Shown: positions 49,588 to 61,989 of the stretch, one piece after another
Layout: each line of letters opens with the position of its first letter
How positions within the stretch are numbered: the stretch's first letter is position 1
Source: Candidatus Kryptoniota bacterium
Lineage (GTDB): Bacteria > Bacteroidota > Ignavibacteria > Kryptoniales > JAKASW01
Assembly: GCA_036567965.1 (NCBI GenBank)
Contig: DATCTN010000017.1
Coordinates: forward strand, 1-64,000
Direction of reading: 5' to 3'
DNA: 64,000 nt
The notes under the pieces: generated by a model
What the model was told of the DNA's origin: nothing
What the model saw: the letters and a program-made list of their open reading frames with translations, nothing else
The model's database searches: none
Program-made: the position numbers and the translations under genes

Positions 49588-49616
49588 GACTCTCCTTTTT
49601 ACACTTCCTTGATTGC
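49588..49616 (+). promoter_or_regulatory. candidate KdpE-type box upstream of the P-II/porin pair
   Basis: About 22 of 29 bases match the sequence at 51,195-51,223 upstream of kdpC, including CTTTTTAC and CTT(G/A)ATTGC. The core CTCCTTTTTACACTTCC, with TTTATAC 20 bases to the left, resembles the pyrimidine-rich TTTATAC...TTTACAC target of KdpE in E. coli. It is therefore a candidate site for the KdpE encoded at 60,481. The similarity between the two boxes is seen; the binding protein is inferred. Confidence 0.5.
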
Positions 49617-49642
49617 GGCGCGCGGCACGCGCCCATCATATT

Positions 49643-50002
49643 ATGTCCGCTATGAAAAAAGTAGAGTTTATTGTCGATGCCGATCTGGTAGACAAAATCT
49701 GCAGATCGTTGATCGAAGTCGGCATAAGGGGAATAATCGCGACCGACATCAAAGTAGATGAAAGCGAAAGACCTATCAGAGAGACCTATAGGGGGATGGA
49801 ATATGAAATTGGATTCGTCCCGAAAGTAAAGCTTGAAGTGAAGATTATTGACTCAATGGTCATTCCGGTTGTCCTAGCGATATCTGAAGGAGCTAGTACT
49901 AATCGAGGTGATAATGTTACACTTGTCATATCACGAATCGAAAAAGCAATTCGAATCGGTACGGACGAGATAGAAACTGAAGTCTCACACTGGCTTCATT
50001 AA
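49643..50002 (+). CDS. divergent P-II family signalling protein
   Basis: The ~119-residue protein has the P-II fold marks: MKKVEFIVDADLVDKICRSLIEVGIRGIIATDIKV, the T-loop end YRGMEYEIGFVPKVKLEVKI with both Tyr residues (46 and 51 in GlnB numbering), and AIRIGTDE near the end. The B-loop, normally TGKIGDGKIFV, reads STNRGDNVTLV, so the two Lys that hold ATP phosphates are missing. The start could be the ATG at 49,643 or 49,652; neither has a strong ribosome site. P-II proteins bind transporters and enzymes to report nitrogen or energy state. Here it leads a porin gene and the kdp operon, not amtB or glnA, so a link with K+ uptake is suggested. Confidence 0.85.
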   Translation: MSAMKKVEFIVDADLVDKICRSLIEVGIRGIIATDIKVDESERPIRETYRGMEYEIGFVPKVKLEVKIIDSMVIPVVLAISEGASTNRGDNVTLVISRIEKAIRIGTDEIETEVSHWLH

Positions 50003-50021
50003 TCTAAGAAAGGACCTATTT

Positions 50022-51134
50022 GTGAGAACGAGAATTTTAGCAGCAGCACTTTTCGTCGACGTTTTGTTGGCGACACGAGTATTCGCAGGTGACTCGACCT
50101 TAACCCAGTCGAAGATCTCATGGTCGGGCTTCGTCGATGTTTATTACAGCAAGAATTTCAACAGCCCGTCTAATCAGCTTAACCAACTTAGGAACTTCGA
50201 TATTTACGAGAACCAATTTGGCTTCAACCTTGCAAAACTGACAGTTCAGGAGCAAGCCCAGCCCGTGGGATTCAGATTGGATCTCGGATTCGGTACAGGC
50301 AACGACATAGTCCAGGGTCTGCTCAATCCGCTTACGGGAACGACAACTGCCTCAGCAAGCACACTTAATATGCTGGAGCAGGCATACCTTACCGCGGTAG
50401 TTCCGGTCGGATCGGGATTGACAGTTGATGTCGGGAAGTTCGCGACCATGATGGGCTACGAAGTGATTGAATCGAACGGAAATTGGAATTATAGCCGTTC
50501 ACTCCTCTTCGCGTGGGCTATACCATATTATCACATGGGAATGAGGCTGACTTACCCGGTCGCGAGCAATTTTACGGTCGCCGTCCACATTGTCAACAGC
50601 TGGAACACCGTCATCGACAACAATAAATCGAAATCCGTGGGACTTGCCCTGAACTATTCGCCTTCTTCTACAACGACATTGACTTTGAACGGAATGAGCG
50701 GTTTCGAGCAGACAATCGGCGTTCCGTACGGAAAGAAGGATGTCGCGGAGTTGATCGTCACGCAGCAATTGGGTGACAATCTGTCTTTGGCGTGCGACGC
50801 TACCTACGGGAGAGAACGTGTATTCGGCTTTTTGAATATGTGGAAGGGGATTGCCCTTTACGGAAAGTACAATCTAGATTCCAAATCAGATGTGGCGCTG
50901 CGCGGTGAAGTGTATTATGATCCCTATGACTACACGATACCTGCGGCGTTTCCAAAGGCGACCTTCAAAGAGATTACCGCCACTTACGAATATCGACCGT
51001 GGGATCCCCTGATCGTCCGGCTGGAAGCACGTGACGATTTCTCAAACGGGAATTCGTTTATATCCGCGAGCACTCCCTTTCCGACGAGGAATTCACAACC
51101 GACACTTCTAGCCTGTGTCATAGTCGTGTTTTGA
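50022..51134 (+). CDS. BBP2-type (OmpL-like) outer-membrane porin
   Basis: The start is a GTG with AAGGA eight bases upstream, 19 bases after the P-II stop. The 370-residue protein has a signal peptide (RTRILAAALFVDVLLATRVFA). It then shows the BBP2 porin-2 pattern: SWSGFVDVYYSKNFNSPSNQ, FGFNLAKLTVQEQAQPVGFRLDLGFG, LEQAYLTAVVPVGSGLTVDVGKF, followed by paired strands of a 16- to 18-stranded barrel. Porins of this group often neighbour kdp genes in Bacteroidota and Acidobacteriota and probably let potassium or other small solutes through the outer membrane. Confidence 0.88.
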   Translation: MRTRILAAALFVDVLLATRVFAGDSTLTQSKISWSGFVDVYYSKNFNSPSNQLNQLRNFDIYENQFGFNLAKLTVQEQAQPVGFRLDLGFGTGNDIVQGLLNPLTGTTTASASTLNMLEQAYLTAVVPVGSGLTVDVGKFATMMGYEVIESNGNWNYSRSLLFAWAIPYYHMGMRLTYPVASNFTVAVHIVNSWNTVIDNNKSKSVGLALNYSPSSTTTLTLNGMSGFEQTIGVPYGKKDVAELIVTQQLGDNLSLACDATYGRERVFGFLNMWKGIALYGKYNLDSKSDVALRGEVYYDPYDYTIPAAFPKATFKEITATYEYRPWDPLIVRLEARDDFSNGNSFISASTPFPTRNSQPTLLACVIVVF

Positions 51135-51310: not shown

Positions 51311-51898
51311 ATGTTTTTGAAACATCTTCGAACGGCGGCAATAAGTATCGTGCTGTTCAGCGTTCTTACGGGACTCCTTTACCCGTTGGCAATTACGGGG
51401 ATCGCGCAGTTGATCTTCCCGTCGCAGGCGAATGGAAGTCTTATTAAAAGTGATGGGAAGGTTGTTGGCTCGTCATTGATCGGTCAGCCATTCAGCGATC
51501 AGAAATATTTTTGGAGCCGCATCTCACCAACCAGTCCATATCCGTACAACGCAGCTGCATCCACAGGATCAAACATTGGTCCTACAAATCCGGCGTTATC
51601 AAGTGAGGTGACTCAGAGGATCAGTGATCTGAATAAGGTCGACTCCCTGAATACTCAGCCGGTCCCGGTTGACCTGGTCACTTCATCCGGCAGCGGACTC
51701 GATCCGCATATCAGCATCGCCGCAGCACTGTACCAGCTTCCAAGAGTCGCGAAAGTTCGCGGCTTAAGTCCGGACTTACTCCGCAGTCTCGTGGACAAAT
51801 TTACCGACGGGAGGTTCCTCGGATTTATTGGCGAGCCCGGTGTCAATGTCCTGAGGTTAAACCTGGCTCTGGACGAAATTCAAAAGAAGGAGAAATGA
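51311..51898 (+). CDS. kdpC: potassium-transporting ATPase subunit C
   Basis: The 195-residue protein has the full KdpC length: one membrane helix (AAISIVLFSVLTGLLYPLAITGIAQLIF), the LIGQPFSDQKYFWSRISPT motif, GSNIGPTNP, and the end motif SSGSGLDPHISIAAALYQLPRVAKVRGL. KdpC stabilises the KdpFABC complex and increases ATP affinity. AGGAG lies eight bases before the ATG. Placing kdpC first in the operon is unusual, since the common order is kdpFABC. Confidence 0.97.
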   Translation: MFLKHLRTAAISIVLFSVLTGLLYPLAITGIAQLIFPSQANGSLIKSDGKVVGSSLIGQPFSDQKYFWSRISPTSPYPYNAAASTGSNIGPTNPALSSEVTQRISDLNKVDSLNTQPVPVDLVTSSGSGLDPHISIAAALYQLPRVAKVRGLSPDLLRSLVDKFTDGRFLGFIGEPGVNVLRLNLALDEIQKKEK

Positions 51899-51900
51899 AT

Positions 51901-52035
51901 ATGGATCTCCTTTATGTCGGCATCACTGCTGCGCTGCTTCTCTTCACATGGGGCCTGATGAAAGTATGTGAGGTCCCTCCCGACAACTCGAAGTCGTCTC
52001 CGGCAGAGGAACAGAAGAGCGGAGGGAAATCATGA
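51901..52035 (+). CDS. 44-residue single-span membrane protein in the kdp operon
   Basis: The frame MDLLYVGITAALLLFTWGLMKVCE, then VPPDNSKSSPAEEQKSGGKS, starts two bases after kdpC and overlaps the kdpF start by four bases (ATGA), which supports real translation. AAGGAG lies nine bases upstream. It has one membrane helix and a charged cytoplasmic tail. Short proteins with an LxxxTWGLxxxCE pattern occur in front of kdpA in several lineages. It may be a second KdpF-like stabilising subunit; this is inference. Confidence 0.75.
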   Translation: MDLLYVGITAALLLFTWGLMKVCEVPPDNSKSSPAEEQKSGGKS

Positions 52036-52124
52036 GTTGGCTTTATCTAGTCGCAGGCATTATTTCATTTGCCTTATTGATCTATTTATTCGTCGCATTA
52101 CTTAGGCCGGAGAAATTCGAATGA
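52032..52124 (+). CDS. kdpF: potassium-transporting ATPase subunit F (30 residues)
   Basis: The peptide MSWLYLVAGIISFALLIYLF, then VALLRPEKFE, is a single membrane helix ending in the KdpF-like LLRPEKF. It is preceded by GGAGGG and overlaps both neighbours (ATGA with the small protein and with kdpA). KdpF is a lipid-like stabiliser of the KdpABC complex. Confidence 0.9.
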   Translation: MSWLYLVAGIISFALLIYLFVALLRPEKFE

Positions 52125-53863
52125 CATTAAATGGAATTATTCAGATCGTATTCTACCTGGTTGTACTGGTGCTTCTTGCCAAACCGCTTGGAACTTTTAT
52201 GGCGAGAATATTCCAGGGAGAAAAAACTTTCCTCCATCCCATATTTGGGCCGATAGAGAAGTTCATCTATCGCCTCTGCGGTATCGATCCCGAAGAGGAA
52301 ATGGACTGGAAGCAGAATGCAATCGCGATGATGATTTTCAATGTGTTGGGCATTCTCATCGTGTATGGGCTGCAAAGGCTTCAACAGCTTCTCCCTTTAA
52401 ACCCCCAGCACTTCGGTGCAGTATCTCCCGATTCGTCATTCAATACCGCCGTCAGTTTTGCGACTAATACGAACTGGCAGGGATACGGCGGTGAGACAAC
52501 GATGAGCTACTTGACACAAATGCTTGCTTTGACTACTCAGAATTTTCTTTCCGCGGCAACAGGAATTGCTGTGCTCGTCCTGTTTATTCGCGGACTCGTC
52601 CGGCATTCCTCAAAAGTGCTTGGTAATTTCTGGGTCGACTTGACGAGAAGCGTGTTATATGTGTTGTTGCCACTTTCGATAATTCTTGCGCTGCTTCTTG
52701 TGTCACAAGGCACAGTGCAAACGTTTTCCTCATACGCGACCGCGAATTTCGTACAGCCAGCGGCGGACACGAGTGGAGCAAAGGTCGCCGAACAGGTTAT
52801 CGCGGTTGGTCCTGCAGCTTCACAGATTGCAATCAAGCAGCTCGGCACGAATGGCGGAGGTTTCTTCAATGTAAATTCCGCGCATCCTTATGAGAATCCT
52901 ACTCCGTTTTCAGATTTTCTGGAAGTGCTTGCAATCCTACTCATCGGAGCTGCGCTCTGTTTCACATTCGGTAAAATGATCGGGGACATGCGCCAGGGCT
53001 GGTCTTTGATTGCAGCAATGATGATAATCCTCGTGGCGATGCTTGCCGTTTGTTATTGGTCGGAGCAGAAGGGAATTCCGCTCCTTACAAAATTGAATGT
53101 CGATCAAATAGCGAGCTCGACACAATCCGGTGGCAACATGGAAGGGAAGGAAGTCCGATTCGGAATAGCTAACTCGGCTCTTTGGGCGACGTCAACGACG
53201 TCCGCCTCCAATGGCTCTGTCAATTCGATGCACGATTCCTTCACGCCGCTCGGCGGATTGATTCCATTGATCGCGATGCATCTCGGCGAAGTTGTCTTCG
53301 GAGGCGTCGGCTCCGGGCTTTATGGAATGCTTGTGTTTGTAATTGTCGCCGTGTTTGTCGCGGGGCTTCTTGTCGGAAGAACGCCCGAATATTTGGGCCA
53401 CAAGATAGAAGCTTACGATATGAAAATGGCATCTCTTCTGATACTCATAATGCCGATCGTCGTCCTGGTCTTCACTGCTCTGGCAGTTGTGGTTCCGGCG
53501 GGAATAGCTATCATGGACAATCCGGGTCCACACGGCTTTAGTGAAATTCTATACACATATACTTCACAGGCCAACAACAATGGAAGTGCCTTCGCAGGTG
53601 TGAATGCCAATGCGCCTTTCCCTAATATCACAGGCGCAATTGCCATGTTTATCTGCCGCTATTGGCTTGCAATACCCACACTTGCGCTCGCAGGCTCGCT
53701 CGTGCGCAAAAAGAAAATTCCACCGAGCGAAGGTACTTTGCCGACTCACACACCTCTTTTCATTTTCTGGTTGATCGCCGTGATACTCATCGTCGGCGCT
53801 CTCAACTTCTTTCCTGCGCTTGCGCTGGGTCCGGTTGTCGAGCACCTCATGATGGTACATTGA
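52121..53863 (+). CDS. kdpA: potassium-transporting ATPase subunit A
   Basis: The 580-residue protein is the channel-like K+-binding subunit. The four selectivity-filter-type loops are visible: TNTNWQGYGGETTMSYLTQM, QLGTNGGGFFNVNSAHPYEN, HDSFTPLGGLIPLIAMHLGE and NNNGSAFAGVNANAPFPN. It has about ten membrane helices and the family start IQIVFYLVVLVLLAKPLG. It overlaps kdpF by four bases. It accepts K+ from the outside and passes it to the pump subunit KdpB. Confidence 0.98.
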   Translation: MTLNGIIQIVFYLVVLVLLAKPLGTFMARIFQGEKTFLHPIFGPIEKFIYRLCGIDPEEEMDWKQNAIAMMIFNVLGILIVYGLQRLQQLLPLNPQHFGAVSPDSSFNTAVSFATNTNWQGYGGETTMSYLTQMLALTTQNFLSAATGIAVLVLFIRGLVRHSSKVLGNFWVDLTRSVLYVLLPLSIILALLLVSQGTVQTFSSYATANFVQPAADTSGAKVAEQVIAVGPAASQIAIKQLGTNGGGFFNVNSAHPYENPTPFSDFLEVLAILLIGAALCFTFGKMIGDMRQGWSLIAAMMIILVAMLAVCYWSEQKGIPLLTKLNVDQIASSTQSGGNMEGKEVRFGIANSALWATSTTSASNGSVNSMHDSFTPLGGLIPLIAMHLGEVVFGGVGSGLYGMLVFVIVAVFVAGLLVGRTPEYLGHKIEAYDMKMASLLILIMPIVVLVFTALAVVVPAGIAIMDNPGPHGFSEILYTYTSQANNNGSAFAGVNANAPFPNITGAIAMFICRYWLAIPTLALAGSLVRKKKIPPSEGTLPTHTPLFIFWLIAVILIVGALNFFPALALGPVVEHLMMVH

Positions 53864-53910
53864 AGAAGTGAAAAGAGAATAATGAAAAGCGAAAAAGGTT
53901 AATTGACATT

Positions 53911-56010
53911 ATGAATACCGAAACTTCACAGCATAAAAGGCCATTAGGTCTTACGGGAGAAATTTTTAGGCGTGCTCTTCTGGATTCGTTCATGAAATTG
54001 AATCCTCTCAACATGATGCGTAATCCGGTCATGTTCGTGGTGGAAGTAGGAAGCGTACTCACAACGGGGTTGTGGATCCAGGCGCTCGTCGGTCACGGGG
54101 AAGCACCTGCATGGTACATCGGGACGGTTTCGCTGTGGCTTTGGTTCACCGTGCTTTTCGCGAACTTCTCCGAGGCGCTTGCCGAAGGACGAGGAAAGGC
54201 GCAGGCGGAAGGATTGCGGAAGGCGCGCCGGGAAACCATGGCAAAAATTCTCGATGACCCCCGGCATGGATCAAAATTTAATCCCGTTCCATCGACCGCG
54301 CTGCATAAGGGTGACTGTTTCATCGCGGAGGCAGGAGATGTCATAGCAGCCGACGGCGAAGTCATCGAAGGGATCGCGTCGGTCGACGAGAGCGCCATAA
54401 CAGGAGAGAGTGCGCCGGTCATACGTGAGTCGGGCGGCGACCGGAGTGCGGTCACCGGTGGCACACGCGTCCTGTCGGACTGGCTCATTATCCGCATGAC
54501 ATCCGATCCAGGAGCAGGATTCCTAGATAAGATGATTCATTTGATCGAAGGCGCGAAGAGGCAGAAGACTCCCAATGAAATTGCTCTGAATATTTTGCTG
54601 GCGGCATTCACAATTATTTTCCTGATGGTTTGCGTGTCGCTCCTTCCGTTTTCTCTCTTCAGCGTGCAGGCGGCCGGACAGGGAACGCCGGTCACCGTCA
54701 CTGTTCTCGTCGCGCTTCTTGTGTGTCTGATTCCGACTACGATCGGAGGACTCCTGTCCGCAATAGGAATCGCTGGGATGGACAGGATGATCCGTCACAA
54801 CGTTATCGCGACCTCGGGACGTGCGATCGAAGCTGCCGGCGACGTAGATGTCTTGCTTCTCGACAAGACCGGCACGGTAACGCTTGGCAACCGGATGGCG
54901 ACAGAATTTGTTCCTGCTCCCGGAATATCGCAGGATCGATTGGTTGATGCTGCTCAGTTGGCTTCCCTGGCGGATGAAACGCCTGAAGGAAGATCGATCG
55001 TAGTTCTCGCGAAGGAAAAGTATGGTCTTCGGGGTCGTGACATCCGTCAGATCTCAGCGCAGTTCGTTCCTTTCAGCGCACAGACCAGGATGAGCGGAGT
55101 TGATATTCAAACTGATGGCAAATCTTTATTCAGGAGTATTCGTAAAGGAGCTGCCGATTCAATTCGCAAATTCGTCGAGCAACAGGGCGGCAAATACCCG
55201 ATCCCTGTCGAACAGCTGGTCCAGGATATCGGGCGCAAAGGCGGGACACCGCTCGTGGTCTCCGAAAACGGAGAGGTGCTGGGCGTAATCCAGTTGAAGG
55301 ACATCGTCAAAGGCGGAATAAAGGAGAGATTCGCACAGTTGAGGACGATGGGAATCAAAACCGTGATGATAACGGGAGACAACCAGCTTACCGCAACTGC
55401 AATTGCCGCTGAAGCAGGCGTCGACGATTTTCTCGCAGAAGCGAAACCTGAAGACAAACTGAAACTTATCCGCCAGTATCAAAGCGGCGGACGGCTTGTG
55501 GCAATGACGGGTGACGGCACTAACGATGCACCGGCTCTCGCTCAGGCAGATGTTGCGGTCGCTATGAATACAGGTACCCAGCCAGCCCGCGAAGCTGCCA
55601 ACATGATCGATCTCGACAGCAATCCAACTAAGCTCATGGAGATAGTCGAGATCGGGAAACAACTCCTTATGACGCGCGGAACACTCACAACATTTAGCAT
55701 AGCGAATGACGTGGCGAAATATTTCGCGATAATACCCGCTGCATTCGCAACGACGTATCCGGTTCTGAACGCACTAAACATCATGAAACTTGCAACGCCG
55801 GAAAGTGCAATTCTCTCAGCGGTCATCTTTAATGCGCTGATCATTGTTGCCCTGATACCACTTGCATTGAAGGGCGTTAAGTACAGAGCCGTGAGCGCGG
55901 TTCATCTGCTGAGAAGACACCTGCTCATCTACGGTGTAGGCGGAGTGATCGCACCTTTCATCGGCATCAAGCTCATAGACATGCTTCTCGCAGCTTTGAG
56001 GATAGTGTAA
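53911..56010 (+). CDS. kdpB: potassium-transporting ATPase subunit B (P-type ATPase)
   Basis: The 699-residue protein carries all catalytic parts: actuator motif [19 protein letters not shown], the phosphorylated Asp at about residue 318 in [12 protein letters not shown], a complete N domain of about 200 residues, and the hinge [20 protein letters not shown]. The membrane motif [14 protein letters not shown] is also present. It pumps K+ delivered by KdpA at the cost of ATP. Length is usual. Forty-seven bases separate it from kdpA, and only seven from the paralogue that follows. Confidence 0.98.
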
Positions 56011-56016
56011 AAGATC

Positions 56017-57603
56017 TTGAGAACGAACGAATCTATTATCCAGGGTTTACATCAATTGAAGACACCCGTGATGCCTGCCAGAACATTTCGCGGTGAATCC
56101 TTCGCTAGATGGAATACTGAGGTGGAAGTGTTCACAAGAAAATTCGATTTTCGGATGATTACGAAGAGACCACTTGTTCTTGTTCCCACATTTTGCGCAT
56201 TGATTGTCACGCTCCTTGTTGTTAGCGGACCTGTCATGGGAAATTTTTCCTGGTTTAATTTTCAACTGATGACGGTGCTCTGGTTGACTGTGGTGCTCAT
56301 GAATCTTGTCGAGTCATTTACAGGTATTGCATATAACGAACCACGAGGAAATACCGCTCGCAAACTTGTTGAGGGAGATGAAACGTTAATCTCTGCGTAC
56401 GCACTTCGCAAGAACAATTTGGTCGTTTGCAAAGCCGGGGACCTGATACCTGCAGACGGAATCGTCATCCAGGGATTTGCAAATGTAGATGAATCTGCCA
56501 TGACCGGCGAATCGGTGTCCGCGATTCGCGAAAGTGGCAAAGATCGAAACAGGGTCATCGCCGGGACGCGCGTCCTTACCGGACGGATTGTCGTGCGTGT
56601 TACAAAGCGACCTACTGACGGTGTGCTTGATCGCGTCGCTTCACTCATTCAAAGCCCATCGCGCGGATTAAGCGGAGATGAGATCTCGATGGCGATGCCG
56701 ATGTGGTTTGTCATAATAAGCTTCTCGCTCTTTTTCATCAGCATTCCATTCCTGCCATCGTCCGCCGGGAGAACACCCTCTGCGTTTTCCGGTGAGATGG
56801 GACTCCTGCCGGCATTTATTTCACTCTGGCTATGTCTTGTTCCGGTCACCGTGGGAAGATCTATGGATTCGTCAGAGACATCAGAAATGAATCGGCTGAT
56901 TAGAAAAGAAATCTTCCCGCCGAATGTCAGTGTGTTAGAGAAGGCAGGCGAAATCGATACGCTCATAGCTGACAAGACCATTGACTCATCTGCGATTGAG
57001 AGAATTAGCCCGAGTCGCACTCTCGTCGAGACTGATCCCGGTAAGAGGCTCTTGCATATTCTGCAGGGGAAGGCATTGGGGCAATTCGTTGGAGTTGTAG
57101 GAAGCGCATCCAATAATGGAGCTGCTTTTGCACAGGCCGACATCGGCTTCTCGGTGCAGTTGAACGGTCATCCTGACTCGAATCTGAAAAGCGTTGTGAA
57201 GATCGGTGAAGACTATTCAAATCTCACGGAAGTCGTTCAAAGCGGAAGGCGATTAAGTGCAGTCAAGCGCGCTTTGACAACATTTGGCATTGCAAGCATA
57301 GTAGCCGGATCGATCATCCTCGTGCCTGCTGCGATCGCGCTCCTTCGCCATGTCGGGATGCAAGGCCCGGAAATTGGACCACTGAATTTCTTGAAGCTGG
57401 GTTCTCCGCAGAGCGCCATCCTGGGAGCTCTCGTCTTCAACTTATTCGAGTATCCGCTTCTCCTTCATGTTACTTCTGAAAGATCGAGCAGGCTTTCACT
57501 CAATGGGGGCATCATTCTGAACCCGAAGTTCGCGGGGGTAGTGGGATTGATCGCGCCAATCATCGGAATAAAAATCCTGGATGTCCTCATTAACGCTCTT
57601 TAA
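56017..57603 (+). CDS. KdpB paralogue lacking the N domain and catalytic motifs (pseudo-P-type ATPase)
   Basis: This uninterrupted frame of 528 codons follows kdpB by seven bases, starting at a TTG (an ATG at 56,071 is the alternative). Membrane helices, actuator domain and MTGES (about 162-166, VDESAMTGESVSAIRESGKDR) are kept. The phosphorylation motif is DKTID instead of DKTGT (Asp at about 319). About 160 residues that would form the nucleotide-binding domain are missing: only about 52 residues separate DKT from the hinge, against about 215 in KdpB. The hinge itself reads GSASNNGAAFAQADIGFSV instead of [19 protein letters not shown]. It therefore cannot work as a pump. A clean frame and operon position argue for a retained structural or regulatory role, for example replacing or modulating KdpB. 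I know of no described protein of this kind in Kdp systems. Confidence 0.88.
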   Translation: MRTNESIIQGLHQLKTPVMPARTFRGESFARWNTEVEVFTRKFDFRMITKRPLVLVPTFCALIVTLLVVSGPVMGNFSWFNFQLMTVLWLTVVLMNLVESFTGIAYNEPRGNTARKLVEGDETLISAYALRKNNLVVCKAGDLIPADGIVIQGFANVDESAMTGESVSAIRESGKDRNRVIAGTRVLTGRIVVRVTKRPTDGVLDRVASLIQSPSRGLSGDEISMAMPMWFVIISFSLFFISIPFLPSSAGRTPSAFSGEMGLLPAFISLWLCLVPVTVGRSMDSSETSEMNRLIRKEIFPPNVSVLEKAGEIDTLIADKTIDSSAIERISPSRTLVETDPGKRLLHILQGKALGQFVGVVGSASNNGAAFAQADIGFSVQLNGHPDSNLKSVVKIGEDYSNLTEVVQSGRRLSAVKRALTTFGIASIVAGSIILVPAAIALLRHVGMQGPEIGPLNFLKLGSPQSAILGALVFNLFEYPLLLHVTSERSSRLSLNGGIILNPKFAGVVGLIAPIIGIKILDVLINAL

Positions 57604-57805
57604 CCTGTTCGGTTCGCCGATTTCGACCACCTGCCACGATACGTTTTGAATTATCTTGCCACCATAGGTGTTTTTCTCGCCGCATCGGTTTTGGAAGTCG
57701 GGAGCGACGCTCTCGTGCGGAAGGGATTGCGTCGAACGGGACGGGGTTTATTGTCGTCAGTGTGTTCGCTTGTGAGAATCTGGCCAAATAATCCTATATT
57801 TCACA
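57604..57805. other. gap between the KdpB paralogue and kdpD
   Basis: The gap is about 200 bases and no gene is seen. It is long enough for a separate promoter of kdpDE; AATAATCCTATATTTCAC just before the kdpD start could include a -10 element (TATATT at 57,792-57,797). Confidence 0.4.
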
Positions 57806-60484
57806 ATGCCTGATGCAGATCATAGCCGCCCGGACCCTGATACACTTCTCAATCTGATCAAGAAGGAAGAGGAGCGTGGGGAAAAAGGAAAGCTTAAGAT
57901 TTTTTTCGGGATGTGCGCCGGAGTTGGGAAGACGTACACAATGCTGAGCGAGGCGAGGGAAGTAGTTGCAAAGGGGATAGATGCGGTCGTGGGGTATGTC
58001 GAGACACATAATCGTCTGGAGACCGCCGAGCTTGTACTGGGTCTCGAGGTGATACCAAGAAGGAAAGTTGAATATCGTGGTACACTCCTCGAAGAGATGG
58101 ATATCGATGCCATTTTATTGAGAAAGCCTAAACTTGTTCTCGTCGACGAGCTGGCCCACACGAACGCGCCGGGTAGTCGTCATGCCAAGAGGTTTCAGGA
58201 TGTTCTGGAATTATTGGATGCAGGCGTCGATGTATTCACCACGCTAAATGTGCAGCATCTTGAGAGCCGCGCCGATTCGGTCGCTCAAATTACCGGCACC
58301 ACCGTCAGGGAGACGGTTCCGGACTCAATTTTTGAGTCGGCGGATGAAATCAAGATAATCGACATATCTCCTGACGATTTGCTCAAGCGTCTCAGCGAGG
58401 GTAAAGTTTACACTCCGGATCGGTCGCGGCAGGCGATTACGAATTTCTTTCGGGAAGGCAACCTGGCAGCACTTAGAGAGATGTCGCTACGCCTTACCGC
58501 TGAGCGAGTAGATCGTGAGCTCCGTGAATACATGCGCGGACAGCGCATCGCCGGCCCCTGGAAATCGGGTCAGCGGCTTATAGCCGCGATTAGTCCGAGC
58601 CCTCATTCGGTTTCCGTCATTCGCTGGGCGCGGAGAGTTTCTTACACGATGGACGCAACATGGGTAGTGGTCTACGTTGAGCACTCCGGGAAATTGAGCG
58701 CTGATGAAAAGAACCAGCTTGCAAAGAACATGAAACTTGCAAAGGAACTCGGTGCAGAGGTTGTGACGACTTCCGACGACAACATTGCCGATGCCCTGAT
58801 GCGCGTCGCACACGAACAAAATGCCGGCCTCATGCTCGTGGGGAAACCGGACCGGACTGTTTTCTCCAGGGCAGCGCGTCTTATCGACGAGCTCATCCAG
58901 AAGAGCAGGGATCTTGACATATACATTGTCGGTCAGGAAGAGGGCCAGCGCACGAGAGTTTCCCGACTCCTTTTCCCCGGACTGCAATCGAGCCTGGCGC
59001 AATATGTGCTCGCAGGAGCTGCAGTATTACTGACTGCTCTGCTCTGTTATCCTATCACGCCTTATATAGGATACCGGACTGTGTCGTTTATAATACTCCT
59101 GATCGTGTCGCTGCTTCCGCTGAGAATGGGACCGGGTCCGACAATCTTGGGTGCGGCAACGGGAGCGCTGGCCTGGGATTTTCTGTTCATTCCTCCCAAA
59201 TTCACCTTCACGATCGGCAATCTCGAAGATATGCTGTTGGTCGGGTTTTATTTCGTGGTGGCATCTGTGACGGGCGTCCTCTCAGCACGCGTACGAAAAA
59301 GAGAGAAGACTCTGCGCCAGCGGGAACAGAGAACCTCGGCTCTGTTTTCTCTTACAAAAGATCTTTCATCGGCACATTCTCAGGACGAGGTCATACAGGC
59401 GGCAGTTTCAAACATAAAGAAGTACTTCGATGCTGATGTCCTGGTGGTCCTTGGCGAAGCCGATGGTGAAGTATCTTCTACCCCGCACAAGATGAGCAGC
59501 TTTGCACCCGATGTGAAGGAAATGGGTGTGGCAGCGTGGTCATACTGGAACGAGCGACGCGCCGGAAGATCAACCGACACCCTGCCGTCGGCTCAGGCAA
59601 CATACTTCCCTATGTCCGGACCGAGATATCCTCTCGGCGTAATAGGAGTTCGCCTCGGTGATGAGGTTAACCTCTCTCAGGAACAGGAGTCGCTCCTGGA
59701 GAATTTCATTTCGCAAATCACGTCCGCGATCGAGAGAGAACTTTTGAACGAAGTTAACAAGAGATCTGTCGTAATGGCGGAATCGGAAAGATTGTATAAG
59801 ACCCTCTTTAATTCCATCTCGCACGAGTTTCGCACGCCGATCGCCACGATAATGGGGACGTCCGAAAATCTTATTCAACAGGGTGGAAGTGCTACGAAAG
59901 AGGTGAATCAGGAAAACCTGAAAGAGATTCATATCGCGGCAGAAAGGTTGAACAGGCTGGTGGCTAACCTGCTTGACATGACTCGCCTCGAATCAGGAAT
60001 GATTCAGCCGAAACTTGACTGGTGTGACATCCGGGATGTCATAAACCAATCTCTGAAGGGATTGGAACGCGAGCTCAGCCAGCATGAGGTCGAGGTCGCT
60101 GTCGAGCAAAACGTCCCACTCCTGAAACTGGATTTCATACTGATCGAACAGGCGTTGACGAATCTGATTCACAATGCGGCGCTTTACACTCCCGCAGGGA
60201 CGAAGATCGAAGTGAAGGCTTATGCTGAGGATGACGCGTGCGCGATTTCGGTCTCCGACGGTGGACCCGGTCTTCCTGAAACCGACACCGACAGGGTCTT
60301 CGAAAAGTTTTATCGTGCGTCCGAAGCAAGGGCGGGAGGGACGGGTTTAGGACTTACCATTGCGAGAGGTTTCGTCGAGGCACATCACGGGAAGATCACA
60401 GCTTCAAACAAGTCGACCGGCGGCGCGGAATTCGTTATTCATCTTCCGATGAGTCACAAGAACTTTACGAGAGGGGAGGATTGA
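57806..60484 (+). CDS. kdpD: sensor histidine kinase KdpD
   Basis: The 892-residue protein has the complete KdpD layout. The N-terminal KdpD domain contains Walker-type GMCAGVGKTYTML (about 35-47) and LVDELAHTNAPGSRHAKRFQDV. A Usp-like domain follows at about 255-375 (RLIAAISPSPHSVSVIRWARR). Next come four short membrane helices (DUF4118, about 395-500), a GAF-like domain, HisKA with the phospho-His at about 673 (SISHEFRTPIATIMG), and HATPase (DGGPGLPETDTDRVFEKFYR, GTGLGLTIARGF). KdpD senses K+ limitation and ionic strength and controls KdpE. In some bacteria its Usp domain binds c-di-AMP, which cannot be judged here. Confidence 0.97.
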   Translation: MPDADHSRPDPDTLLNLIKKEEERGEKGKLKIFFGMCAGVGKTYTMLSEAREVVAKGIDAVVGYVETHNRLETAELVLGLEVIPRRKVEYRGTLLEEMDIDAILLRKPKLVLVDELAHTNAPGSRHAKRFQDVLELLDAGVDVFTTLNVQHLESRADSVAQITGTTVRETVPDSIFESADEIKIIDISPDDLLKRLSEGKVYTPDRSRQAITNFFREGNLAALREMSLRLTAERVDRELREYMRGQRIAGPWKSGQRLIAAISPSPHSVSVIRWARRVSYTMDATWVVVYVEHSGKLSADEKNQLAKNMKLAKELGAEVVTTSDDNIADALMRVAHEQNAGLMLVGKPDRTVFSRAARLIDELIQKSRDLDIYIVGQEEGQRTRVSRLLFPGLQSSLAQYVLAGAAVLLTALLCYPITPYIGYRTVSFIILLIVSLLPLRMGPGPTILGAATGALAWDFLFIPPKFTFTIGNLEDMLLVGFYFVVASVTGVLSARVRKREKTLRQREQRTSALFSLTKDLSSAHSQDEVIQAAVSNIKKYFDADVLVVLGEADGEVSSTPHKMSSFAPDVKEMGVAAWSYWNERRAGRSTDTLPSAQATYFPMSGPRYPLGVIGVRLGDEVNLSQEQESLLENFISQITSAIERELLNEVNKRSVVMAESERLYKTLFNSISHEFRTPIATIMGTSENLIQQGGSATKEVNQENLKEIHIAAERLNRLVANLLDMTRLESGMIQPKLDWCDIRDVINQSLKGLERELSQHEVEVAVEQNVPLLKLDFILIEQALTNLIHNAALYTPAGTKIEVKAYAEDDACAISVSDGGPGLPETDTDRVFEKFYRASEARAGGTGLGLTIARGFVEAHHGKITASNKSTGGAEFVIHLPMSHKNFTRGED

Positions 60485-61167
60485 GCGACAAGCCGGTAAT
60501 TCTCGTGATCGATGACGAGGTGCAGATTCGCCGCCTTCTACAGCTGACACTTGAATCAAACGGATATGACGTCCGTGAATGTGCGAAAGCGAGCGAGGGA
60601 TTGGCAAAGACGGCTTCGGAGCGACCGGAGCTGGTCATTCTGGATCTTGGACTCCCGGATATGGATGGATTGGAAGTCCTGAAGAAGATACGCGAGTGGT
60701 CTGAAGTCCCCGTCCTCGTTCTGTCCGTCCGAAGTTCCGAAAACGATATCATATCCTGCCTCGATGCGGGTGCCGATGATTATTTGGTGAAGCCGTTCAG
60801 AACAGGAGAGCTGCTTGCCCGTGTCAGGACGGCCGTCAGGCACAGACAGGGCGACGAGTATAAATCGGTTTTTTCTGTTGCGGATCTCCAGGTGGATCTG
60901 TCTTCGCGGATCGTGAAGAAGAAGGATCAGATCCTCAAGCTGACTCCGACTGAATACTCCCTCCTCGCTCTGTTCGTCCGGAACGCCGGCAGAGTCCTGA
61001 CGCACAAATATATCCTTGAACAGGTGTGGGGTCCCAATCTTTCAGACGAGACGCAATATTCGCGGGTGTATGTAGGACAGCTGCGCAAAAAGATCGAAAG
61101 TAACCCGGCGGACCCGAAAATTATAATTACCGAATCAGGGATCGGTTATCGCCTCAGTACCGAATAA
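60481..61167 (+). CDS. kdpE: OmpR-family response regulator KdpE
   Basis: The start is a TTG that overlaps the kdpD stop (TTGA) and follows GGGGAGGA closely. The 228-residue protein has a receiver domain with acidic pair DD at 11-12 and phospho-acceptor Asp55 in LVILDLGLPDMDG, switch Ser in VLVLSVRSSE and Lys in DYLVKPFRTGEL. The OmpR/PhoB winged helix follows (LTPTEYSLLALFVRNAGRVLTHKYILEQVWG ... YVGQLRKKIE). It should activate kdp transcription. Likely targets are the boxes at 49,588 and 51,195. Confidence 0.97.
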   Translation: MSDKPVILVIDDEVQIRRLLQLTLESNGYDVRECAKASEGLAKTASERPELVILDLGLPDMDGLEVLKKIREWSEVPVLVLSVRSSENDIISCLDAGADDYLVKPFRTGELLARVRTAVRHRQGDEYKSVFSVADLQVDLSSRIVKKKDQILKLTPTEYSLLALFVRNAGRVLTHKYILEQVWGPNLSDETQYSRVYVGQLRKKIESNPADPKIIITESGIGYRLSTE

Positions 61168-61215: not shown

Positions 61216-61989
61216 ATGGATTCGCTGACTCTGCTTTTGACGGTAGCTATGTCGATCTTTTTAAGAGGGCAAACCCCCGACAAAACCGATCTTTCCAGGT
61301 TGTTCAAGGGGCACGACGGATGCTTTGTCATGTTCGATAGGAACAAGAATGAGTATTTCAGATACGACAGTTCAAGATGCGCGAAGAGATTTCTTCCCGC
61401 CTCGACGTTCAAGATCCCTCACGCGGTGATAGCTCTCGAGACGGGCGTGATTCCGGATACGAACTACGTGATAAAGTGGGACGGGACGAACTACGACATC
61501 AAAGAATGGATGAGAGATCAGAATCTTGCCTCGGCAATCAGATATTCTGTGGTTTGGTTCTTCCAGGACATCGCCAGGAAAATTGGAAGGGCCGGCGAGC
61601 AGCACTTTCTCGATACATTATGCTATGGCAACAAGACGATCGGCAAGGAGGTCGATAGGTTCTGGCTCGACAACAGCCTCAAGATTTCAGCCGACGAACA
61701 AATTGAATTGCTAAGGAAGCTTTATTCAGATAGTCTTTCGGTATCGAAGCGCTCAATGGAAACCGTAAAGGCGATCCTGCCGGCAGAGGTGCACGGAAAG
61801 GCGATTATGAAATTCAAAACCGGCATGGGGCACTCGGATCGTTTTACAGGCTGGCTCGTCGGATTTGTCGAAAGAGAAAGCGATGTTTATCTCTTCGCGT
61901 TCAATATTGACGGAGAGAATTTTGAAGAGACTTCTGCCTTAAGAGATTCAGTCCCGCGCGAGATTATGTCAAAAATCGGAATTCTCTGA
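61216..61989 (+). CDS. class D (OXA-type) beta-lactamase
   Basis: The 257-residue protein has all class D motifs. The active-site PASTFKIPHAVIALETGVI holds Ser63 and Lys66, YSVVWFFQDIARKIG the second motif (Ser-x-Val), YGN is present, and FWLDNSLKISADEQIELL and FKTGMG (KTG box) follow. The N-terminal hydrophobic stretch LTLLLTVAMSIFL is a short export signal. GGAGAAGGA precedes the ATG. Enzymes of this class hydrolyse penicillins and oxacillin by a carbamylated-Lys mechanism. The gene lies 48 bases after kdpE, so read-through from the kdp operon is possible. Environmental OXA-like genes may be intrinsic rather than acquired; no mobile element touches it. Confidence 0.93.
   Translation: MDSLTLLLTVAMSIFLRGQTPDKTDLSRLFKGHDGCFVMFDRNKNEYFRYDSSRCAKRFLPASTFKIPHAVIALETGVIPDTNYVIKWDGTNYDIKEWMRDQNLASAIRYSVVWFFQDIARKIGRAGEQHFLDTLCYGNKTIGKEVDRFWLDNSLKISADEQIELLRKLYSDSLSVSKRSMETVKAILPAEVHGKAIMKFKTGMGHSDRFTGWLVGFVERESDVYLFAFNIDGENFEETSALRDSVPREIMSKIGIL

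What the first reader, a model, noticed from the sequence alone, without database searches (positions are those of the whole stretch)
56017..57603. KdpB-like pseudo-ATPase without N domain, encoded inside an otherwise complete kdp operon
A second P-type ATPase gene follows kdpB by seven bases. It keeps membrane helices and the TGES actuator motif, but DKTGT has become DKTID, the GDGTNDAP hinge reads GSASNNGA, and about 160 residues of the nucleotide-binding domain are missing. The frame is intact over 528 codons, which is unlikely for a decaying duplicate with such deep change. It may be a regulatory or scaffold partner of KdpFABC, for example forming an alternative complex with KdpA/KdpC or acting as an ion-sensing brake.
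Basis: partly seen in the sequence, partly recalled or inferred. Interest (0 to 1): 0.88.

Follow-up and report, generated by a model that had tools for sequence, protein, structure and literature searches.

The report
Dead KdpB paralogue in kdp operon
Next to the genes for a bacterial potassium pump sits a selected, catalytically dead copy of the pump's ATPase that has lost its engine but kept the one loop by which the pump's sensor kinase is known to switch the pump off, so it may be a decoy or regulator for that kinase.

Summary
An intact 528-codon KdpB-derived frame (56017-57603) lies between a normal kdpB and kdpD. It lacks the nucleotide-binding domain, the phosphorylation motif DKTGT, the GDGTND hinge and both M5 ion-coupling residues (D583, K586). 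It is not a private pseudogene. Four congeneric genomes carry a similar dead, N-domain-less KdpB directly before kdpD. Among those four, dN/dS is 0.23-0.34 (kdpB itself 0.013-0.031). No other genome among 391 of the class and 395 of the phylum carries one. A small YnfA-like gene between it and kdpD has decayed in the window while it stayed intact.

Constraint is concentrated in the A domain, most of all around TG(E/Q)S. The serine is invariant in all five copies, while the catalytic glutamate is glutamine in three. In E. coli that serine (KdpB S162) is the site that KdpD's N-terminal serine kinase phosphorylates to shut the pump off; a catalytically dead KdpB is still phosphorylated there. The window's pump genes belong to a different lineage from its relatives', whereas kdpDE are native.

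Best reading: a membrane-anchored A-domain mimic that engages KdpD as decoy or pseudosubstrate. Dead and maintained: shown. Acting through KdpD: inferred (about 40%). A non-pumping KdpFA(B2)C complex is the main rival.

The parts
56017..57603 (+). B2: KdpB-derived pseudo-ATPase, 528 aa, intact, TTG start 6 bases after kdpB
   Evidence: relatives in four congeneric genomes
56350..56655 (+). B2 actuator (A) domain, residues 112-213; the most constrained domain
   Evidence: Pfam PF00122; omega 0.177 vs 0.312 for the rest; AF2 pLDDT mostly 88-97 for residues 111-200 apart from the 161-170 loop
56449..56550 (+). TGES block (residues 145-178) with DESAMTGESVSAIRESG; Ser166 (codon 56512-56514) = E. 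coli KdpB S162, the site phosphorylated by KdpD
   Evidence: omega 0.097; densest run of residues invariant in all five B2 (13 of 20, permutation P 0.0025)
56971..56979 (+). Degenerate phosphorylation site: DKT followed by IDS (DKTGT lost); junction of the N-domain deletion
57100..57123 (+). Degenerate hinge GSASNNGA (GDGTNDAP in KdpB)
53911..56010 (+). kdpB, canonical ([17 protein letters not shown]), 699 aa
   Evidence: NCBIfam TIGR01497 1073 bits; groups with G006/G031/L076, not with the genus-type KdpB
52121..53863 (+). kdpA
   Evidence: TIGR00680 770.8 bits
52032..52124 (+). kdpF-like 30-aa ORF overlapping the kdpA start
   Evidence: read from sequence; size and position typical of kdpF
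51311..51898 (+). kdpC
   Evidence: NF001454 250.6 bits
57646..57791 (+). Decayed remnant (frameshift and deletion) of a YnfA/UPF0060-like gene that is intact at this place in G002, G012 and G006: a local control for what decay looks like
57806..60484 (+). kdpD, full length, with the Walker A (GMCAGVGKT) and Walker B (LVLVDE) motifs of the serine kinase domain and a normal histidine-kinase H-box
60481..61167 (+). kdpE

Best explanation
B2 is a duplicated KdpB that selection has turned into a non-catalytic, membrane-anchored A-domain mimic. Shown: it cannot run the P-type cycle (no N domain, no DKTGT, no hinge, no M5 ion-coupling pair); it is kept by purifying selection; and the constraint is concentrated on the A domain and its TG(E/Q)S loop. 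Inferred: it works by presenting the serine equivalent to KdpB S162 to the N-terminal serine kinase domain of KdpD, encoded just downstream. As a decoy substrate, or where Glu161 has become Gln a slow pseudosubstrate, it would occupy that kinase. It would then raise the K+ threshold at which KdpB is phosphorylated and the pump is irreversibly shut down, or make the switch sharper.
For: Catalytic residues lost, S162 kept in 5 of 5 while E161 is E/Q/Q/E/Q. Omega: TGES block 0.097, A domain 0.177, rest 0.312; the A/rest ratio is 0.56 (95% 0.37-0.84) in B2 but 1.24 (0.60-2.40) in KdpB of the same four species, so constraint has shifted to the A domain. The densest invariant stretch of all five B2 is residues 145-164 (P 0.0025). 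All five B2 lie directly upstream of kdpD, with only a YnfA-like gene or its remnant between in some. Genus KdpDs keep Walker A and B. The window's pump is of another lineage (KdpA 56%, KdpC 47% to the other carriers; order C-A-B, not A-B-C) while KdpD/KdpE are native (70-75%), so B2 stayed with kdpDE and not with one pump type. Literature: KdpD phosphorylates KdpB S162; E161Q only cuts it by 64%; KdpD was earlier reported to interact with KdpB (PMC11018627); catalytically dead D307A KdpB is still highly phosphorylated on S162 (PMC7535926).
Against: No direct evidence of contact with KdpD. The TGES loop is also the most conserved block of ordinary KdpB (block/rest 0.35), so part of the pattern may be inherited A-domain fold constraint. 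A-domain sites specific to KdpB are kept less (35/70) than sites shared with metal ATPases (85/110); T177, S184 and D185 are lost in all five, so a KdpD-specific surface need not be intact. A pure decoy would not need seven transmembrane helices and a folded P remnant, yet both persist. Five of 11 kdp-bearing genomes in the genus have B2, so it is dispensable, and the window's sister G006 lacks it.
Confidence: 0.4

Rival explanations
1. B2 replaces KdpB in an alternative KdpFA(B2)C complex that cannot pump: a brake, a K+ sensor or a sealed form of the channel subunit KdpA.
For: B2 keeps the KdpB order of helices (seven transmembrane-like helices in the model), M4 Pro264 in 5/5, best structural matches are KdpB chains of KdpFABC (TM-score about 0.6), and the window copy keeps about half of the KdpB-conserved M6-M7 sites (20/39).
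Against: Membrane segments are the least constrained (omega M1-M2 0.415, M3-M4 0.38, windows to 0.55); D583/K586 lost in all; M5 keeps 2-4 of 20 KdpB-conserved sites in four of five copies. KdpA differs in lineage between the window (56% identity) and the other carriers.
Confidence: 0.22
2. B2 is a membrane co-sensor or scaffold for KdpD that acts on its histidine-kinase/phosphatase balance or localisation, independent of serine phosphorylation.
For: Constant linkage to kdpD; conserved A domain and folded P remnant; KdpB-KdpD interaction is reported (cited in PMC11018627).
Against: Does not explain why the TGES serine block is the tightest part; no KdpD variant specific to carriers was seen in the motifs checked.
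Confidence: 0.15
3. B2 is a duplicate in slow decay with no present function.
For: Evolves about ten times faster than kdpB by omega (0.23-0.34 vs 0.013-0.031); patchy distribution; absent from sister G006; the window copy is the most reduced.
Against: Five intact frames; under neutrality 0.4 substitutions per site gives about 14 stops and none of 300 simulated genes stayed open, against pairwise dS of 0.45-1.25; the neighbouring YnfA-like gene decayed in the window while B2 did not; omega 0.08-0.10 in the TGES block.
Confidence: 0.1
4. B2 does something unrelated to Kdp (for instance a chaperone or lipid-linked role) and is only transcribed with kdp.
For: A low G002-G009 B2 dS (0.45) beside kdpB/kdpC/kdpD dS of 1.5-2.3 suggests that B2 moves between species on its own.
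Against: In all five genomes it sits in the kdp locus and nowhere else.
Confidence: 0.08

Closest known systems
KdpB (TIGR01497), ATPase subunit of KdpFABC
   Same: Homologous over A domain, membrane helices and P-domain parts; same operon; TGES with the regulatory serine
   Different: No N domain, no DKTGT, no GDGTND, no D583/K586; 209 bits against a 527.9-bit cut-off
KdpB S162 / KdpD atypical serine kinase regulation (PMC11018627, PMC7535926)
   Same: Serine and surrounding DESAxTGxS...RESG block kept; KdpD Walker A/B intact next door
   Different: Known targets are active pump subunits; no dead paralogue that could compete for KdpD was found described in the papers searched
TMEM94/ERMA, animal P-type-ATPase-like protein of disputed activity (PMC12134183)
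   Same: P-type architecture argued to lack catalytic cycling
   Different: TMEM94 is reported to lack TGES; B2 lost the rest and kept TG(E/Q)S; no sequence relation tested here
Short KdpD-only serine kinase systems (e.g. Deinococcus geothermalis KdpD, PMC11018627)
   Same: Post-translational control of KdpB through S162 is conserved across species
   Different: They change the kinase; here the apparent innovation is an extra, dead substrate-like protein

Membership tests
KdpB (functional equivalog TIGR01497) | Score above curated cut-off | tested here: not met
   209.2 vs 527.9 bits
KdpB (functional equivalog TIGR01497) | Phosphorylation motif DKTGT (D307) | tested here: not met
   DKTID in the window; DEKEV, DEEEV, DEKEA, EEKEV in the others
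KdpB (functional equivalog TIGR01497) | Nucleotide-binding domain | tested here: not met
   128 of 130 columns absent in the window, 101 in the others
KdpB (functional equivalog TIGR01497) | M5 D583 and K586 | tested here: not met
   I/T and G/M in all five
KdpB (functional equivalog TIGR01497) | Membership of a KdpFABC complex | not testable with these tools
   no complex prediction available
P-type ATPase superfamily by descent | A-domain/E1-E2_ATPase homology | tested here: met
   PF00122 81.6 bits vs cut-off 28.1; KdpB chains are the best PDB matches by sequence and fold
P-type ATPase superfamily by descent | Haloacid-dehalogenase hydrolase domain PF00702 | tested here: not met
   no match in B2, though the model shows a folded P remnant
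Works like: KdpD serine-kinase substrate or pseudosubstrate | Serine equivalent to S162 in TG(E/Q)S | tested here: met
   5 of 5
Works like: KdpD serine-kinase substrate or pseudosubstrate | E161 supporting phosphotransfer | tested here: met
   Glu in the window copy and G012; Gln in the other three
Works like: KdpD serine-kinase substrate or pseudosubstrate | Cognate KdpD with Walker A and B | tested here: met
Works like: KdpD serine-kinase substrate or pseudosubstrate | Physical binding or phosphorylation | not testable with these tools
   needs biochemistry or complex modelling
Pseudogene | Broken frame or dN/dS near 1 | tested here: not met
   five intact frames; omega 0.23-0.34 within the four-genome clade; the window copy's dS to the others is saturated

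The most novel reading that the evidence does not exclude
A P-type ATPase has been converted into a dedicated decoy or pseudosubstrate for a two-component sensor's serine kinase. This would be a previously undescribed regulatory layer in which a dead paralogue buffers the irreversible shut-off of its active sister pump.
Probability: 0.35. Interest if true: 0.85.

Novelty: new variant of a known kind. Interest (0 to 1): 0.64.

Why it matters
In the papers searched, no selected pseudoenzyme form of KdpB was found. That KdpD phosphorylates KdpB S162 was reported in 2024, and how its threshold is set is open. A natural dead paralogue that keeps just that loop is a ready-made tool: it can be added to or removed from a standard KdpFABC/KdpD assay. 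It also shows that a P-type ATPase can lose its N domain and catalytic site and still be retained, with the constraint moving to the A domain.

Tried and rejected
Assembly or frameshift error: rejected, with the same arrangement in four independent MAGs. Private decaying duplicate: rejected by relatives and omega, with the YnfA-like remnant as a local control. Recent duplicate of the adjacent kdpB: rejected; B2 is nearer to the genus-type KdpBs (37% over the tree columns) than to its neighbour (32%). Wider distribution: class (391 genomes) and phylum (395) HMM searches and a pattern scan of 84,980 species found no further copies; short KdpB-like frames elsewhere that I checked were contig edges or frameshifts, and all but one edge-cut fragment kept DKTGT. 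First AlphaFold model (8 sequences) was too poor (pLDDT 51); a 38-sequence alignment gave 75. Tree attachment of B2 to the KdpB tree is unresolved: branches are very long and AU tests do not reject a genus-type origin; clustering of the window copy with the other four (92/96 and 100/100) could include long-branch attraction, although a MAxPxW motif after the A domain that the aligned KdpBs lack supports one origin. A viral-contig scan gave nothing.

Full report
Observation. The frame 56017-57603 encodes 528 residues without a stop. It lies 6 bases after kdpB in an otherwise complete kdp locus: kdpC, kdpF-like, kdpA, kdpB, B2, kdpD, kdpE. Against its neighbour KdpB (33% identity) it has TGES, but DKTID for DKTGT, GSASNNGA for GDGTNDAP, and almost the whole N domain missing. 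TIGR01497 gives 209 bits, far below the 527.9 cut-off; Pfam finds the A-domain family only.

Relatives. Of 12 congeneric genomes, four (G002, G009, G012, G003; MAGs WY2.bin60, SKS5.bin54, MAS4.bin38, DX1.bin11) have a second, dead KdpB of about 583 aa directly after kdpC and upstream of kdpD. Motifs there read DEKEV/DEEEV/DEKEA/EEKEV, and TGQS in three, TGES in one. Six further congeneric genomes have kdp without B2 and two have no KdpB. HMM searches of 391 genomes of the class and 395 of the phylum found no more; the short KdpB-like frames of other genomes that I checked are contig edges or frameshifts, and all but one edge-cut fragment keep DKTGT.

Descent. The five B2 form one side of a branch against 38 KdpBs (92/96 with a mixture model, 100/100 with LG+G4), but on very long branches; where they attach is not resolved. 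They share a MAxPxW stretch after the A domain that the aligned KdpBs lack. The window's own kdpB groups with G006, G031 and a betaproteobacterial MAG rather than with the genus-type kdpB, and its gene order (C before A and B) agrees with G006 and G031; kdpD and kdpE are of the native genus type. The simplest account is that a foreign kdpCFAB cassette replaced the native pump genes while B2-kdpD-kdpE stayed; this is inference, and later acquisition of B2 is not excluded. Carriers are not one clade on the KdpD tree, and the G002-G009 B2 pair has dS 0.45 where kdpB, kdpC and kdpD have 1.5-2.3, so loss and exchange between species are both likely.

Selection. Among the four relatives dN/dS is 0.23-0.34 for B2, against 0.013-0.031 for kdpB and about 0.04-0.06 for kdpD and kdpE. 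Neutral simulation at 0.4 substitutions per site leaves about 14 stops and none of 300 frames open. In the window a YnfA-like gene that is intact at this place in three relatives survives only as a frameshifted, deleted remnant (57646-57791) beside the intact B2. For the window copy itself dS is saturated, so its own dN/dS is not measured; its intact frame and shared conserved block are the evidence there.

Where the constraint lies. By region omega is 0.415 (M1-M2), 0.177 (A domain), 0.38 (M3-M4), 0.20-0.24 (P remnants) and 0.28 (M5-M7). The TGES block 145-178 has 0.097. The A/rest ratio is 0.56 (95% 0.37-0.84) in B2 but 1.24 (0.60-2.40) in KdpB of the same genomes, so the relative weight of constraint moved to the A domain. 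The densest invariant stretch across all five copies is 145-164, 13 of 20 (permutation P 0.0025). S162 is serine in 5/5, while catalytic E161 is Gln in 3/5, D583 is I/T and K586 is G/M. The A domain keeps 27-30 of 44 KdpB-conserved sites in every copy, against 20-27 of 86 in the P2 part.

Structure. With 38 sequences AlphaFold2 gives mean pLDDT 75, mostly 88-97 in the A domain apart from the loop at 161-170, and mostly above 80 in the residual P domain, with seven transmembrane-like helices and the N domain cleanly removed. The best PDB matches are KdpB chains of KdpFABC (TM-score about 0.6). Helices M6-M7 and the N-terminus are poorly modelled.

Mechanism. In E. coli, KdpD's N-terminal Walker A/B domain phosphorylates KdpB S162 at high K+ and shuts the pump irreversibly; E161Q lowers this by 64% only (PMC11018627), and catalytically dead D307A KdpB is still highly phosphorylated at S162 (PMC7535926). 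B2 is thus what a dedicated substrate mimic would look like: anchored, dead, A domain and serine kept, encoded beside kdpD whose kinase motifs are intact. I commit to a decoy/pseudosubstrate of KdpD at about 40%. Caveats: the TGES loop is also the most conserved block in ordinary KdpB, KdpB-specific A-domain sites are kept only half the time (35/70 against 85/110 for generic ones), and no interaction was tested.

Rivals. An alternative KdpFA(B2)C complex (22%) is weakened by the loose membrane segments and by the change of KdpA lineage. A KdpD co-sensor or scaffold without phosphorylation (15%), residual decay (10%) and an unrelated role (8%) remain.

Novelty. The paper searches found no dead KdpB paralogue. 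TMEM94, a disputed animal P-type-like protein, is reported to lack TGES (PMC12134183); B2 lost the other catalytic parts instead. I call it a new variant of a known kind: a pseudoenzyme derived from KdpB. The distribution is narrow (five MAG-level genomes of one genus) and the function inferred, hence interest 0.64.

Noticed in passing
57646-57791 (window); L039, L041, L043 just before kdpD: A YnfA/UPF0060-like gene of about 107 codons stands before kdpD in G002, G012 and G006; in the window only a frameshifted and deleted remnant is left; absent in G009 and G003.
   Followed up: partly
51311-56010: The window's kdpC-F-A-B cassette is of another lineage and gene order than the pump genes of most congeners (shared with G006 and G031), while kdpD/kdpE are native: apparent replacement of the pump by a foreign one.
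   Followed up: partly
49613-51134: A PII-like signalling protein and a BBP2/OmpL-like porin gene precede the kdp genes; the porin also precedes kdp in G002, G009, G012, G011 and G006, and a PII-like gene in G002 and G006.
   Followed up: no
61216-61989: An intact class D beta-lactamase-like gene (246 bits, just under the 250-bit family cut-off) follows kdpE, with STFK and KTG motifs.
   Followed up: no
L182 and L183 (G133, G364, one family): kdpB is split in both genomes after 577 codons; in L183 the rest (GDGxND and M5 motif) lies in an overlapping frame: a shared frameshift, perhaps programmed or an old lesion.
   Followed up: no
L043:3492-9530 (G006): G006 carries a second, divergent kdp-like cluster with a kdpA-like fragment, kdpB, a 344-aa protein with KdpC similarity and another kdpA.
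   Followed up: no
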